DNA of 64,000 nucleotides from Tumebacillus sp. BK434 (GTDB taxonomy: Bacteria > Bacillota > Bacilli > Tumebacillales > Tumebacillaceae), in contig NZ_SLXS01000011.1 of the NCBI RefSeq assembly GCF_004340785.1, positions 1 to 64,000 on the forward strand, given 5' to 3'. The notes beneath the pieces were generated by a model, which was not told the DNA's origin, ran no database searches, and worked only from the letters and a program-made list of their open reading frames with translations. Within the stretch, counting starts at the first letter, position 1, and each line of letters opens with the position of its first letter. Shown one piece after another: positions 32,683 through 52,049 of the stretch. The position numbers and the translations under genes are program-made.

Positions 32683-33501
32683 TCAAGGGAGAAAGCCTTG
32701 TTGGGAGATGAAGATCGTATCCGGCGGAAACTCGGCTTGCAGACGGTGCAGGACACGGAGATAAGCGTCGCGGCTGTACCAGTCCTCAAAGCCGTGCTCA
32801 TGGTACATGTCCCCGATGCGCAGTCGCTCAGTGCGCTTGCCGCCGCTGCCGTCGCCCATGAAGAAGTCGTCGAGGCAGACGCGGCTGACGATGCCGGCGA
32901 GCGTGCGGGCGAAATGGTCGCTGCTCGGCAAAACGGGCGCGATCGTCGCTTGCACCGGGATGCCCGCGTCGGCGAGCGTTTGCAGAGCTTTGAGCCGGGC
33001 AGGGATCGGCGGGGCTTGCGGCGAGAAGAGCTTGCGGATGTCGTCGCGGTCGGTCTCGACGGTGACCGAGACGCGAATGCGATCCTTTAGCGCCTGAAAC
33101 AGGTCGAGGTCGCGGGCGACGAGCGGGCTGCGGGTCTGGACGAACAAGAAGTCGGGCGGATGCTCCACCATCGTTTCCAGCAAGCTCCGGGTGACTTTTT
33201 CCTGCGCTTCGAGCGGCTGGTACGGGTCGGTGCTGGAAGACATGAAGATGGTGACCGGGCCTTTTTGGCGGGCGTTCTGCAGCTCTTTGTTCAGCTTGGC
33301 GGCCGCTTCCGTTTTGACATCGATCCAGGTGCCCCACGCTTCGCCCCGAAACAGCGCCACCGGCATCTGGCGGACGTAGCAGTAGGAGCAGGCATAGGAG
33401 CAGCCGGTGTACGGGTTGAGGGTGTGGCTGTAGCCGGTGAGATAGCCGCTCGCCGGGTTGAGGAGCTTGGACGGCTTTTTATGGGTGATCGTGTGTTTCA
33501 C
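32683..33501 (-). CDS. Radical SAM protein, SPL-like (Rv2578c family)
   Basis: The 272-residue protein has the Fe4S4/SAM-binding CxxxCxxC motif in YTGCSYACSYCYVRQ (about residues 33-42), and the family segments MSSSTDPYQPLE and VSVTVETDRDDIRKLFSP. It resembles the spore-photoproduct-lyase-like radical SAM proteins of unknown reaction. Its start overlaps the end of the M81 peptidase gene by 23 bases, so they share a transcript. No partner enzyme reveals the chemistry. Confidence 0.88.
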   Translation of the reverse strand: MKHTITHKKPSKLLNPASGYLTGYSHTLNPYTGCSYACSYCYVRQMPVALFRGEAWGTWIDVKTEAAAKLNKELQNARQKGPVTIFMSSSTDPYQPLEAQEKVTRSLLETMVEHPPDFLFVQTRSPLVARDLDLFQALKDRIRVSVTVETDRDDIRKLFSPQAPPIPARLKALQTLADAGIPVQATIAPVLPSSDHFARTLAGIVSRVCLDDFFMGDGSGGKRTERLRIGDMYHEHGFEDWYSRDAYLRVLHRLQAEFPPDTIFISQQGFLP

Positions 33502-35002
33502 AGCAAGCCTCCTCTGCGATTTCGTCGAGCGGCCAGACCGGGCGCGGGATGTTTCGGTAGGGAAAGCGGTGCAGGCTCGGGTTGGCCGGGCCGGGCGCGT
33601 CGACTTCGAGGATGGAGCTGGCGATCGGCTCGAAGGAGGCGCGGAAATGGCCGCGGGACTTGATGACCAGCACGGGCATCGCGGCCGGGTCGATGCCGAC
33701 GCTGGTGAAGACGGCGGTGTCGATGCAGGCGCGGCGGTGCGTGGTGATGACGAGCTTCAGACCGCCCGTCTCGATGACGGCGGTCGGGCCCATGTCTTGC
33801 TCGCCCCGGCTGACCGGGGAGGTCGCCGTGAAGCGGCCGTCGGTGAGGGCGAGGACGGTGCCAACGACCTCCAGCGGTGCGCCGTAGTCGGGGCAGGATC
33901 GGCCGCCGATGGTGAAGCGGGCGGTGTTGTTCAGGCCGGTGCTGATGGCCTGCTCGACCGTCTCCGGGTCGTGGATGCAGGCGACAGCAACGCCTGTGAC
34001 GCCGCAGCGCAGCAGTTCGTGGAGCAGGACGGTCGTGTCGGCAGCCCCTCCCCCGGTCGGGTTGTCGGCGACATCGGCGAGGATGATCGGGCCGGAGGGG
34101 CGGTTGACGTCTGCCAAAAGAGAGAGCGTTTGCCGGACGGCCGCTTCGTAAGTGGGGATTTCTTTGAGAAATTGGTCGCGGATCTCCCATGCTTTGGCGG
34201 CGATAGCGGTGGCGCATGCGGCCGCGAGGGATGAGTCGCCGTCCGCGGTGGCGACGATGGAGAGACCGGCACCGGAAAAATCGCAGTACGGGAAACCTCC
34301 GAAGACGGAAACGTTTAAGATACCCGGTCGCTCCTCCCACTGGCGGGCAAGGGCGAACAGCTCGGCCATCGGACCTTCTGCTGTGCGCATGTTGATCGTC
34401 GGCGGGAGCATGCGGTGCGGCGGATCGGCATGCGCGGTGACCGGGCGGATGGTGCCGAGCAGGGCCTGCTCCATGCAGGCGGCAGCTTCGGTGGCGCGCT
34501 CGATCAGGTCGATGTGCGGGTTGGTGTCAAAGGCAAAGACCCCGTCACAGTGCGCGCACATCTCCGGTGTGATGTTGCCGTGCAGGTCCATGGCGAGGAT
34601 CAGCGGCCGGTCGCCGATGATGCCCTTCACCGCCCGGCAGATGTCGCCTTCGACGTCGTCGGTGCCTTCCGCCATCATCGCGCCGTGCATGAAGAGGAGT
34701 ACGCCGTCCGGCTGTTCGCGCTCGATGGGGGCGAGCAACTGCTCTTTCATCCACCGATAGTGCTGTGCATCGGTCGGCTTGGAAGGCAGTGTCTGCGCAG
34801 CCAAAGTGGGGATGACTTCCCATCCTGCTTGTTCCGCATAATCGAGAAACGCGCCGACGGGGGTATGGCTCCCCTTCCAGATCGTCAAAATGTCTGCGCC
34901 TGCGGTCAGACCCCATGTTTCCCATTCGGAGCGCGGGGTGGATACGGGGGAAAAGCTGTTCGATTCGTGGCTGATCATGCCGATGGCGACGCGTTTTTTC
35001 AT
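33479..35002 (-). CDS. M81-family metallopeptidase (MlrC / microcystinase C-like)
   Basis: The 507-residue protein starts with KKRVAIGMISHESNSFSP, the typical MlrC N-terminus, and carries zinc-ligand candidates in ISHESNS, MDLHGNIT and FAFDTNPHIDLIERA. A C-terminal MlrC_C domain follows with ADVADNPTGGGAADTT. Family members hydrolyse linearised peptides or peptide-like substrates. CGGAGG precedes ATG 35002; the longer frame to 35131 runs back through a terminator and is rejected. It lies directly after the small peptide genes but across a terminator, so a role in peptide turnover is only a possibility. Confidence 0.9.
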   Translation of the reverse strand: MKKRVAIGMISHESNSFSPVSTPRSEWETWGLTAGADILTIWKGSHTPVGAFLDYAEQAGWEVIPTLAAQTLPSKPTDAQHYRWMKEQLLAPIEREQPDGVLLFMHGAMMAEGTDDVEGDICRAVKGIIGDRPLILAMDLHGNITPEMCAHCDGVFAFDTNPHIDLIERATEAAACMEQALLGTIRPVTAHADPPHRMLPPTINMRTAEGPMAELFALARQWEERPGILNVSVFGGFPYCDFSGAGLSIVATADGDSSLAAACATAIAAKAWEIRDQFLKEIPTYEAAVRQTLSLLADVNRPSGPIILADVADNPTGGGAADTTVLLHELLRCGVTGVAVACIHDPETVEQAISTGLNNTARFTIGGRSCPDYGAPLEVVGTVLALTDGRFTATSPVSRGEQDMGPTAVIETGGLKLVITTHRRACIDTAVFTSVGIDPAAMPVLVIKSRGHFRASFEPIASSILEVDAPGPANPSLHRFPYRNIPRPVWPLDEIAEEACCETHDHP

Positions 35003-35041: not shown

Positions 35042-35071
35042 AAAAAAAAGGGAAGCCCTTGCGGGCTTCCC
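35042..35071 (-). terminator. Rho-independent terminator of the small peptide operon
   Basis: On the minus strand GGGAAGCCC-GCAA-GGGCTTCCC is followed by eight T. It lies 20 bases after the first small peptide gene and should end the three-peptide transcript. Confidence 0.92.
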
Positions 35072-35090
35072 TGCTCTGTGTGCGCTTGGC

Positions 35091-35225
35091 TTAGCCGCGC
35101 GCCATGTAGCTGTACTGCGGCGGGGTGTCACCGGTGTTGGCTGCCGCTTGCGACGAGGTCGCCGGTGCGCCGATCACGATGATCGAAAAGGCCAGTGCGG
35201 TCATGAAAGCGATGCTTTTTTTCAT
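35091..35225 (-). CDS. Small secreted peptide precursor A (44 aa, Phr-like layout)
   Basis: The peptide has a signal sequence (KKS, then IAFMTALAFSIIVIG, with likely cleavage after SSQA) and a short exported tail ending QYSYMARG. The first 23 residues are identical to those of precursor C, and both end in YMARG, while the spacer between differs. A perfect AAGGAGG sits 9 bases before the ATG. The layout (signal peptide plus 5-8 conserved C-terminal residues) is that of Phr/RRNPP-type signalling peptides. No receptor gene is nearby, so the role is inferred. Confidence 0.8.
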   Translation of the reverse strand: MKKSIAFMTALAFSIIVIGAPATSSQAAANTGDTPPQYSYMARG

Positions 35226-35260
35226 GGTGGTTTCCCTCCTTAGTGGTTGACGAATTTGGT

Positions 35261-35362
35261 TTAGAAGCAGACTTCGATCGACATGATGGCGATGATTTTG
35301 CTTTCCGGAGTTTCCGAGTGCTGAACGGTTACGTCGAGATCGAACATGTTTTGGTTTTCCAT
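35261..35362 (-). CDS. 33-aa peptide with class I lanthipeptide-like leader (FDLDV)
   Basis: The peptide carries the motif FDLDV at residues 7-11, matching the FNLD-type leader box of nisin/subtilin/gallidermin precursors recognised by LanB. It ends IIAIMSIEVCF, where SIEVC has the Ser-x3-Cys spacing of nisin ring A (SISLC). It has no signal peptide. A strong AAGGAGG precedes the ATG and it lies between two near-identical secreted peptide genes on the same strand. No LanB, LanC, protease or ABC transporter gene is in the window, so it may be a shortened, repurposed or trans-modified precursor. Confidence 0.75.
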   Translation of the reverse strand: MENQNMFDLDVTVQHSETPESKIIAIMSIEVCF

Positions 35363-35397
35363 AGGTTTTTGCCTCCTTAGGTAGGTGTGATTTTGTC

Positions 35398-35517
35398 TTA
35401 ACCGCGCGCCATGTACGGCTGCGGCGTGTCGCCGGCCGCTTGCGTTGTGGTCGCCGGTGCGCCGATCACGATGATCGAAAAGGCCAGTGCGGTCATGAAG
35501 GCGATGCTCTTTTTCAT
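35398..35517 (-). CDS. Small secreted peptide precursor C (39 aa, paralogue of A)
   Basis: It has the same 23-residue signal sequence as precursor A at both protein and nearly DNA level, a shorter spacer and the end QPYMARG. GAGGTGA precedes the ATG. As the first gene of the trio it probably shares one transcript with the other two. The high identity of the signal region and tail, with divergence between, points to a recent duplication under selection on both ends. A secreted signalling pentapeptide or hexapeptide is the most likely product. Confidence 0.8.
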   Translation of the reverse strand: MKKSIAFMTALAFSIIVIGAPATTTQAAGDTPQPYMARG

Positions 35518-35639
35518 TGTGGTCACCTCGTTTTGTGTGTGGTGTGTTTCCCTTGACTTAAATATAAACCATACGGGGGTATCCTACATCGCAATTGTTG
35601 CGGGCGTGGAATGTCAATTTTTGCAACTTGCAGGCAAAC

Positions 35640-35668
35640 AAAAAAGCCCTGTGCAAACGCACAGGGCT
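35640..35668 (-). terminator. Terminator of the purine operon
   Basis: On the minus strand AGCCCTGTGC-GTTT-GCACAGGGCT is followed by TTTTT, 12 bases beyond purD. Confidence 0.92.
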
Positions 35669-35680
35669 CTTGAGTCACAC

Positions 35681-36943
35681 TTAGCGAAACGCTTTTTCGG
35701 CGATGTCTTTGCGGTAATGCACGCCTTCGAACTGGATCTGCTCGACGGTGCGGTACGCTTCTTCCTGCGCCGCTTTCAGGTCTGTGCCGAAGCCAGTGAC
35801 GCCAAGGACTCGGCCGCCGTTCGTGACAATGCCTGCGTCGGTCCGCTTGGTGCCGGCGTGGAAGACGACCGCGTTGTCACCGGCAGTCTCGAGGCCGCTG
35901 ATCAGGTCGCCTTTCTCGTAATCGGCCGGATAGCCACCCGCCGCCATGATCACGCAGACCGCCGCGCGGTCGCTCCACGTTACGTCGAGGTCGGCCAGCG
36001 TGCCGTCGACGACCGCGTTGAAGATGTCCAAGAGGTCGGTTTCGAGACGCGGCAGCACGACTTGGGTCTCCGGGTCGCCGAAGCGGGCGTTGAACTCGAT
36101 CACTTTCGGGCCGTCGGCGGTGAGCATCAGGCCTGTGTACAAGGTGCCTTTGTACGGGGTGCCGTTGTTGGCGAGGAAGTGGATCACCGGGCGGATGATC
36201 TTCTCTTCCACCTCTTGCAGCAGCGCCGCATCGACCACCGGCACCGGGGAGTAGGTGCCCATGCCTCCGGTGTTCGGGCCTTGGTCGCCGTCATAGGCCG
36301 GCTTGTGATCTTGCGCCGGGACCATCAGCTTGACGGTGTCGCCGGAGATGAACGCCATCACGGTCGCTTCCGGGCCGGTCAGGAACTCTTCGACCACCAC
36401 TTGCGAGCCGGAGTCGCCGAACGCCTTGTCTTTCATCATCATGTCCAGCGCGGCTTCCGCTTCTTCCACCGTCTGGGCCACGACGACGCCTTTGCCCGCG
36501 GCGAGACCGTCCGCTTTGATCACGATCGGTGCGCCTTGGGCGCGGACATACTCTTTCGCCGCATCCAGCGAGCCAAAATACGCCGCACCCGCTGTCGGCA
36601 CCTGCTTCGCCGCCATGACTTCTTTAGCGAACGCTTTCGAGCCTTCGATCAGCGCGGCACCTTTTTTCGGGCCGTAGATGCGCAAGCCGCGCTGTTCGAA
36701 CTCATCGACGATGCTGAGCAAGAGCGCCGCTTCCGGGCCGACGACAGTAAGCTCAATGCCTTCCTGTTCCGCAAAATCGGCCAGTGCGGTCACGTCTTCT
36801 GCGGAGATGTTCACGCACGTCGCCAGCTCGGCGATGCCCGGGTTGCCCGGCGCGCAGTACAGCTCAGGCTGACGGGGCGACTGGGCCAGTTTCCAAATGA
36901 TCGCGTGCTCGCGGCCACCGCCGCCTACTACCAATACTTTCAT
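35681..36943 (-). CDS. purD: Phosphoribosylamine-glycine ligase (GAR synthetase)
   Basis: The 420-residue ATP-grasp enzyme makes GAR from phosphoribosylamine, glycine and ATP, step 2 of de novo purine synthesis. It has the N-terminal VLVVGGGGREHAIIWKLAQS, ATP-grasp segments (IKADGLAAGKGVVVA, EEFLTGPEATVMAF) and C-terminal FNARFGDPETQVVLPRL with metal ligands. It is the last gene of the eleven-gene operon, in the same place as in Bacillus subtilis. Confidence 0.98.
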   Translation of the reverse strand: MKVLVVGGGGREHAIIWKLAQSPRQPELYCAPGNPGIAELATCVNISAEDVTALADFAEQEGIELTVVGPEAALLLSIVDEFEQRGLRIYGPKKGAALIEGSKAFAKEVMAAKQVPTAGAAYFGSLDAAKEYVRAQGAPIVIKADGLAAGKGVVVAQTVEEAEAALDMMMKDKAFGDSGSQVVVEEFLTGPEATVMAFISGDTVKLMVPAQDHKPAYDGDQGPNTGGMGTYSPVPVVDAALLQEVEEKIIRPVIHFLANNGTPYKGTLYTGLMLTADGPKVIEFNARFGDPETQVVLPRLETDLLDIFNAVVDGTLADLDVTWSDRAAVCVIMAAGGYPADYEKGDLISGLETAGDNAVVFHAGTKRTDAGIVTNGGRVLGVTGFGTDLKAAQEEAYRTVEQIQFEGVHYRKDIAEKAFR

Positions 36944-47619: not shown

Positions 47620-47704
47620 CTCCCTTCGGTGTCATGTCCACTCCTGGTAGACATGTGAATCGCTTGGACCTACTCAGAGCGAGCGGAACCCTAGATTCAC
47701 TTTC

Positions 47705-47770
47705 GTTCGTAGTCCGGCGATTCCGGTCGCCGGGTAGAGACTCTCAGGCCAATCCCCGAGTATATACGAG
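47705..47770 (-). promoter_or_regulatory. Guanine riboswitch aptamer controlling the pur operon
   Basis: The minus strand matches the purine aptamer: P1 strands CGTATATAC / GACTACG, the core GTCTCTACC, and J3/1 GACTACG with the C that pairs with guanine (the adenine type has T here). Loops L2 and L3 carry the kissing bases (GGGGATTGGCC and CGACCGGAATCG). It sits 35 bases after the -10. Guanine binding should favour the downstream terminator and shut the operon off. Confidence 0.93.
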
Positions 47771-47801
47771 CTATTGTCGGTTGATGTCATTGTCTACCGT
47801 A

Positions 47802-51940: not shown

Positions 51941-51965
51941 CGAATGGCTGGCACGATGTCGAATC

Positions 51966-52030
51966 CTCGTAGTCAGTTCTTTACGGGAACTGGTAGAAAC
52001 TTCCGGGCCATATCCCCGGCTATATACGAG
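51966..52030 (-). promoter_or_regulatory. Guanine riboswitch aptamer controlling guaA-pbuG
   Basis: A near-consensus purine aptamer on the minus strand: P1 CTCGTA/TACGAG, TATATAGCCGGGGATATGGC, GTTTCTACC, CCGTAAA in loop 3, then GACTACGAG whose C specifies guanine. It is the second such element in the window and its loops match the consensus better than the first. Confidence 0.95.
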
Positions 52031-52049
52031 ACAACTTGTTTTCGACATC

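What the first reader, a model, noticed from the sequence alone, without database searches (positions are those of the whole stretch)
35091..35517. Three-peptide locus: two near-identical secreted peptides flanking a lanthipeptide-like peptide
Seen: three short genes with strong ribosome binding sites on one strand, ended by a clear terminator. The outer two share an identical 23-residue signal sequence and the C-terminus YMARG, with divergent middles. The inner one has FDLDV and no signal peptide. Inferred: a signalling pair (Phr/RRNPP style) surrounding a ribosomally made, possibly modified peptide is an arrangement I do not know from described systems.
Basis: partly seen in the sequence, partly recalled or inferred. 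Interest (0 to 1): 0.84.

Follow-up and report, generated by a model that had tools for sequence, protein, structure and literature searches.

The report
Secreted-peptide operon carrying an orphan lanthipeptide precursor
A small Tumebacillus operon pairs two copies of a short exported peptide that looks like a signalling pheromone with one member of a large scattered set of lanthipeptide precursors, suggesting that cell signalling and a mix-and-match peptide factory may be wired together.

Summary
The three short genes are real. They show dN below dS, good ribosome binding sites and a terminator, and a rearranged set sits at the same purD/M81 site in Tumebacillus avium. The outer peptides have a Sec-type signal and an invariant C-terminal YMARG. 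Lone homologues (KYMARGN) lie beside a ypiB-like gene in two sister-genus genomes. All four YMARG loci share the upstream element GCAAAAATTG-N12-CGCAA-N31-TANNNT. The peptides look like Phr-type pro-pheromones, but no receptor was found nearby and none is assigned.

The middle peptide has a class I lanthipeptide leader. It is just under the NCBIfam cut-off; two T. avium counterparts pass it. No LanB lies on its contig. Another contig holds LanB, an ABC transporter and LanC. Of 23 FDLDV-type precursors read in the genome, 16 lie away from any LanB. The one family genome of seven without LanB has no such peptides. Best reading: an orphan precursor modified in trans, like prochlorosins but class I, inside a pheromone-type operon. 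T. avium has the order F-Y-F, so the flanking arrangement is not conserved.

The parts
35398..35517 (-). Ya: 39-aa exported pro-peptide, Sec-type signal, C-terminal YMARG
   Evidence: selection; homologues
35261..35362 (-). F: 33-aa class I lanthipeptide-like precursor, FDLDV leader, conserved Ser-X3-Cys near the C-terminus (S28, C32)
   Evidence: T. avium counterparts above the NCBIfam cut-off
35091..35225 (-). Yb: 44-aa paralogue of Ya, same signal and YMARG, longer middle
35049..35072 (-). intrinsic terminator ending the operon
35598..35624 (-). upstream element GCAAAAATTG-N12-CGCAA, present at all four YMARG loci (two genera)
35561..35566 (-). candidate -10 hexamer TATATT, exactly 31 nt after the element in all four loci; no -35 consensus in front of it
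   Evidence: assignment is inference; the sigma-70 scan found no site
35569..35583 (-). GATACCCCnGTATGG, dyad-like block conserved in the two trio loci only
35642..35671 (-). terminator between purD and the trio

Best explanation
The trio is one operon with its own, probably activator-dependent, promoter. Shown: the genes are under selection; the YMARG peptide and its upstream element occur together in two unrelated chromosomal places; FDLDV-type precursors are many, dispersed and partly conserved in place, and among seven family genomes occur only in those with LanB. Inferred: the three genes share one message; Ya and Yb are exported, trimmed to a C-terminal peptide ending in YMARG, and act as a cell-density pheromone on a receptor encoded elsewhere; F is dehydrated and cyclised in trans by the distant LanB/LanC (one Ser28-Cys32 ring is the simplest product) and exported by the ABC transporter next to them. 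Placing F genes inside the YMARG operon would make this one lanthipeptide of the set follow the pheromone operon's regulation.
For: Selection. Rearranged set in T. avium. Invariant YMARG in five peptides whose identity to the first is as low as 40%. Shared element with the 31-nt spacing in 4 of 4 loci, and no other exact match in the 1,159,647 bases held, overlaps counted. Leader family. LanB (PF04738, PF14028), ABC transporter and LanC (PF05147) on contig C4, with six FELDV/FDLDV-type ORFs beside them. FDLD-profile hits at E <= 1: G000 25 (21 at E <= 0.01), G005 26, G006 19, G001 22, G002 23, G004 15, G003 0. PF04738 in the same 6 of 7 genomes and not in G003. Several orphans keep similar cores and shared neighbours between species (judged by eye).
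Against: No RNA, proteomic or chemical evidence. The window's F scores 18.8 bits against a cut-off of 20 and has a single Cys. No receptor was found by any YMARG gene examined (window and three loci of 11-14 kb). Short secreted ORFs beside receptors are of another type. YMARG peptides are present in 4 of 398 sampled class genomes, and the trio in 2 of 7 family genomes. One relative keeps only a remnant without signal peptide. The element does not fit a ComA box, so its activator is unknown, and with up to 3 mismatches it has scattered hits in real and shuffled DNA. Co-occurrence of LanB and FDLD rests on seven related genomes.
Confidence: 0.5

Rival explanations
1. The YMARG peptides are exported but act outside the cell, for example as small antimicrobials or surface-acting peptides, and F is simply co-expressed. 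No intracellular receptor exists.
For: No receptor found next to the YMARG loci examined. The secreted-type short ORFs beside receptors in these genomes mostly carry proline-rich motifs such as PPEP or PPDP, not YMARG.
Against: Conservation is concentrated in the signal and the extreme C-terminus (YMARG invariant, middles free). The C-terminus is the usual place of a Phr-type signal (passages of PMC7425212).
Confidence: 0.25
2. F is a decaying orphan lanthipeptide gene that is no longer modified; the operon is in the course of loss.
For: Window F is below the NCBIfam cut-off; one Cys only; only a remnant of the locus in G005.
Against: Three F copies keep FDLD, Ser28 and Cys32. dN 0.23-0.28 against dS 0.61-1.27. 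T. avium keeps two copies above the cut-off.
Confidence: 0.15
3. Ya and Yb are small membrane peptides (type I toxin-like) rather than secreted pro-peptides.
For: About 40 aa with one hydrophobic stretch and a short tail.
Against: Small-residue triplets of signal-peptidase type (SQA, TQA, THA, HVA/VAA, ASA/SAA) follow the hydrophobic stretch in the five homologues (by eye; no signal predictor was run). The Rfam scan listed three hits in the window, none here, though it would miss an undescribed antisense RNA. Two copies in one operon do not suit a toxin (inference).
Confidence: 0.07

Closest known systems
Phr/AloP-type pro-pheromones of RRNPP systems (B. subtilis, Paenibacillus polymyxa; PMC7425212, passages)
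   Same: Short ORF, N-terminal export signal, functional part expected at the C-terminus.
   Different: No adjacent receptor found; two copies with the same ending in one operon with a RiPP precursor; YMARG unlike the proline-rich peptides beside receptors in this family.
Class I FDLD lanthipeptides (NCBIfam NF038155)
   Same: Leader box FDLDV; T. avium counterparts score above the cut-off; LanB and LanC in the genome.
   Different: Precursor encoded on another contig from the enzymes; a single Cys, with Ser-X3-Cys.
Prochlorosins (class II, ProcM; PMC10783134, start of abstract in a search listing; PMC7268733, passage)
   Same: Many precursors, many of them encoded far from one synthetase.
   Different: Here class I enzymes (LanB/LanC) and FDLDV leaders instead of LanM and Nif11-type leaders; Bacillota.
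Class I cluster of Tumebacillus flagellatus with 10 precursors (PMC7268733, one passage)
   Same: Same genus name; probably the G002 cluster L086, where ten FDLDV-type ORFs precede LanB (identity inferred).
   Different: That survey looked within seven genes of the LanC-domain gene, so dispersed precursors such as the trio's F lay outside it.
ComA-controlled promoters (PMC4797271, passages)
   Same: TTGCGG/CGCAA-like half-sites in the sister-genus element.
   Different: Spacer of 8, while ComA bound inverted repeats only at 4 or 5; TTGACA in place of TTGCGG in the trio loci.

Membership tests
Class I lanthipeptide precursor (FDLD family) | FxLD-type leader recognised by the curated model | tested here: inconclusive
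   Window peptide 18.8 bits, cut-off 20; T. avium counterparts 22.1 and 23.2; 8 of the 10 peptides pass, one LanB-side peptide (16.6) and one array peptide do not
Class I lanthipeptide precursor (FDLD family) | C-terminal core with Ser/Thr and Cys | tested here: met
   S28 and C32 invariant in three copies; only one Cys
Class I lanthipeptide precursor (FDLD family) | LanB and LanC available | tested here: met
   In trans only: PF04738 in four genes of the genome, none on the window contig; LanC beside the C4 LanB. LanC was not searched genome-wide
Class I lanthipeptide precursor (FDLD family) | thioether rings in the product | not testable with these tools
   needs co-expression and mass spectrometry
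RRNPP pro-peptide (Phr-like) | short ORF with export signal and conserved C-terminus | tested here: met
   (signal of the YMARG peptides judged by eye, no dedicated predictor)
RRNPP pro-peptide (Phr-like) | receptor gene adjacent | tested here: not met
   tblastn of 30 receptors against the window and the loci L016, L019, L020: one weak hit (E 0.002) inside purD
RRNPP pro-peptide (Phr-like) | re-imported peptide binds a TPR receptor | not testable with these tools
   25 HTH-TPR receptor matches in the genome; none assigned
ComA-regulated promoter | TTGCGG-N4-CCGCAA | tested here: not met
   spacer 8 in all four loci; spacers other than 4 or 5 reported incompatible with binding (PMC4797271 passage)

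The most novel reading that the evidence does not exclude
Tumebacillus runs a class I counterpart of the prochlorosin system: one LanB/LanC set serves some two dozen scattered precursor genes. Individual precursors have been placed under separate regulators. The YMARG operon is the case in which a pheromone-type peptide and a single-ring lanthipeptide are made from one message, so that a modified peptide is released as part of a cell-density signal.
Probability: 0.25. Interest if true: 0.75.

Novelty: new variant of a known kind. Interest (0 to 1): 0.52.

Why it matters
Dispersed in-trans precursors are known for class II (ProcM). A class I version with separate LanB and LanC would show that combinatorial lanthipeptide biosynthesis arose more than once, and would offer many natural substrates of one LanB. 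The trio ties one of these substrates to an exported pheromone-like peptide with its own conserved control element. That makes the open question of why a cell keeps so many lanthipeptides testable: they may be regulated one by one.

Tried and rejected
Receptors as orphans: one search suggested that receptor genes lack secreted peptides. That scan looked on one strand only while the loci are not oriented; searches corrected it. One search lists one secreted-type ORF in each of 15 of 30 loci. In G000, 18 receptors were fetched (the 18 shown in the cut listing, which counts 25): seven loci list an ORF, six kept, L175's opposite-strand one judged spurious. CsoR-like (copper) control from GATACCCCnGTATGG: a lead dropped. 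In 7 genomes only the two trio loci carry it exactly; two one-mismatch hits lie elsewhere and their neighbours were not read. ComA control: rejected on spacing. Mobile element: no match to Yb in plasmids or phages. Wider family: the profile listed a weak fifth genome of 398 (G376, E 5.5e-4) matching model positions 1-34 of 43, not YMARG; L098 and L099 match only query residues 1-27 and 1-26. These three were dropped. Pfam gave nothing for the three peptides, NCBIfam nothing for the outer two. A literature search for YMARG showed 10 of 75 papers, all unrelated by title; searches on Tumebacillus with RRNPP or quorum sensing gave 0 papers and 12 off-topic ones.

Full report
OBSERVATION. On the minus strand between purD (35681-36943) and an M81/MlrC-type peptidase gene (33479-35002) lie three short ORFs: Ya 35517-35398, F 35362-35261 and Yb 35225-35091. 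Each has a good ribosome binding site. The gaps are 35 nt each, and the scan lists no terminator between the genes. The purD terminator (35671-35642) and a strong terminator (35072-35049) close both ends. Ya and Yb share residues 1-23 exactly and both end in YMARG.

REALITY AS GENES. Codon counts: Ya/T. avium Y dS 0.389, dN 0.035; Ya/Yb 0.283, 0.074; Yb/T. avium Y 0.517, 0.116; F pairs dS 0.61-1.27, dN 0.23-0.28; purD 0.408, 0.047. In the five YMARG codons every change is synonymous. These are short genes, so single values are rough. The third genome of the genus, G005, keeps YMARG codons and a terminator-like stretch beside a shortened M81 start; the frame before YMARG meets a stop and has no signal peptide. 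An ancestor F-Y-F-Y that lost the first F in one line and the last Y in the other fits these facts (inference).

THE YMARG UNIT. Two of four genomes of the sister genus (G001, G002) have one homologue each, ending KYMARGN, between a ypiB-like gene (UPF0302 and IDEAL domains) and a creatininase gene (domains from the G001 copy). At the same place no such ORF was listed in G000, G003, G004, G005 and G006. A profile found the family in 4 of 398 genomes drawn evenly from the class, all in this bacterial family; a fifth, weak match does not reach YMARG and was dropped. In all four loci the upstream region holds GCAAAAATTG-N12-CGCAA, then exactly 31 nt, then TATATT, TATATT, TAAGAT or TATGAT. 32 of 84 columns are invariant. 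Cross-genus pairs share 41-45 of 84 bases, against at most 30 at other registers. Within 1,159,647 held bases (overlaps counted) the exact element occurs only at these four loci. Four other places match with 2 mismatches and many with 3; shuffled DNA gives 10-16 hits with up to 3 mismatches per 669,324 bases. Whole genomes were not scanned for it. No -35 consensus precedes the hexamer, so an activator is likely (inference). It is not a ComA box: the half-sites are 8 nt apart, and ComA bound inverted repeats only at 4 or 5 (PMC4797271, passages).

RECEPTORS. The genome has 25 matches to an HTH-TPR (RRNPP-like) receptor at E <= 1e-8, and the other six family genomes 25-49. Thirty receptors used as queries gave one weak hit, inside purD, in the window and in three YMARG loci. 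Where secreted-type short ORFs sit beside receptors, most carry a proline-rich motif in the C-terminal part. So the outer peptides resemble Phr-type pro-peptides in build but fail the test of an adjacent receptor; a distant receptor stays possible. 'RRNPP' is a mechanism proposed, not membership shown. A survey of RRNPP systems (PMC10075063, one passage) counts ten candidate biosynthetic clusters with such systems in Alicyclobacillaceae; the word Tumebacillus is not in its main text.

THE MIDDLE PEPTIDE. NCBIfam NF038155 (FDLD class I lanthipeptide) gives 18.8 bits against a cut-off of 20. The two T. avium copies reach 22.1 and 23.2, and 8 of the 10 peptides scanned pass. All 11 peptides of alignment A5, chosen before the genome-wide search, match at E <= 0.1. 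Ser28 and Cys32 are invariant. PF04738 finds no LanB on the window contig. Contig C4 has LanB (PF04738, PF14028), an ABC transporter and LanC (PF05147) with six FELDV/FDLDV-type ORFs beside them.

DISPERSED PRECURSORS. A profile of these peptides found 25 hits in G000 at E <= 1, 21 of them at E <= 0.01. I fetched and read 23 of the 25; the hits on C24 and C6 were not fetched. 19 of the 23 pass my ribosome-binding-site pattern. Six lie at the LanB-transporter-LanC cluster, one beside a second LanB, and 16 elsewhere: 15 of these are 135-314 kb from the nearest LanB on their contig, and the trio's contig has none. Ten form an array at C4:474-476 kb with cores such as TAVGSCAFVC (L133). Arrays and single orphans recur with shared neighbours and similar cores in G005 and G006 (L138, L143; L134/L144; L135/L141/L145; L136/L146, by eye). 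A second G005 array (L139) is nearly the same as that of G000 but has other neighbours. Across 7 family genomes, 6 have PF04738 and the same 6 have FDLD peptides; G003 has neither. Seven genomes are few and related, so this is support, not proof. Prochlorosins are the known parallel in class II (PMC10783134, start of abstract in the listing; PMC7268733, passage). PMC7268733 notes a T. flagellatus class I cluster with 10 precursors but searched only within seven genes of the LanC-domain gene. Among the titles and abstract starts shown by my searches (2 of 2; 15 of 106; 12 of 23; 12 of 28) none is on dispersed class I precursors. I read passages of two of these papers, and the library lacks most subscription papers.

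HOW IT MOST LIKELY WORKS. An activator at the conserved element turns on one message. Ya and Yb are exported and trimmed to a YMARG-ending peptide that reports cell density through a receptor elsewhere. F is modified in trans by the distant LanB/LanC. Shown: gene layout, selection, shared element, leader family, dispersed precursors, co-occurrence with LanB in seven genomes. Inferred: single transcript, processing, receptor, ring, export, and the link between signal and lanthipeptide.

VERDICT. The 'pair of signals around a peptide' reading is only partly right, because the order is not conserved and both outer genes are copies of one gene. The wider finding, a dispersed class I lanthipeptide precursor set with one member inside a pheromone-like operon, is a new variant of known kinds.

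Noticed in passing
L133:8334-10004 (G000:C4:474-476 kb); L138, L139 (G005); L143 (G006): Arrays of 8-10 FDLDV class I lanthipeptide-like precursors with SCAFVC-type cores, with no PF04738 hit in the regions read; in L133, L138 and L143 near an RluA-type gene and a permease-like gene.
   Followed up: partly
L137:6062-6262: 66-aa FDLDV peptide with six Cys, about 228 kb from the nearest LanB; best NF038155 score of the ten peptides (27.5 bits).
   Followed up: partly
L045-L074, L160-L177: Large expansion of HTH-TPR receptors (25-49 matches per genome); 15 of the 30 best and 6 of 18 in G000 have a short secreted-type ORF, mostly upstream on the same strand and with a proline-rich motif.
   Followed up: partly
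L045 (G001:C4:255914-257741), L135: FDLDV peptide pairs lie a few hundred bases to about 1.7 kb downstream of an HTH-TPR receptor; possible direct pairing of receptor and lanthipeptide genes.
   Followed up: no
window 33479-35002: M81/MlrC-type peptidase gene directly downstream of the trio (in T. avium an extra small reverse ORF lies between); may be chance.
   Followed up: no
L078:6408-6753; L083:9712-10253: Identical tandem Ser/Cys-rich precursors (MEIKALEVTGLEVMDLNDAMALPETAASSG...) near a LanB-like gene (PF04738), thiopeptide-like by recall.
   Followed up: no
window 51950-52049 and 47690-47789, minus; 48-113, minus: Two purine riboswitches and a Bacillaceae-1 RNA.
   Followed up: no
window 35569-35583: GATACCCCnGTATGG block between element and hexamer, exact only in the two trio loci; unexplained.
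   Followed up: partly
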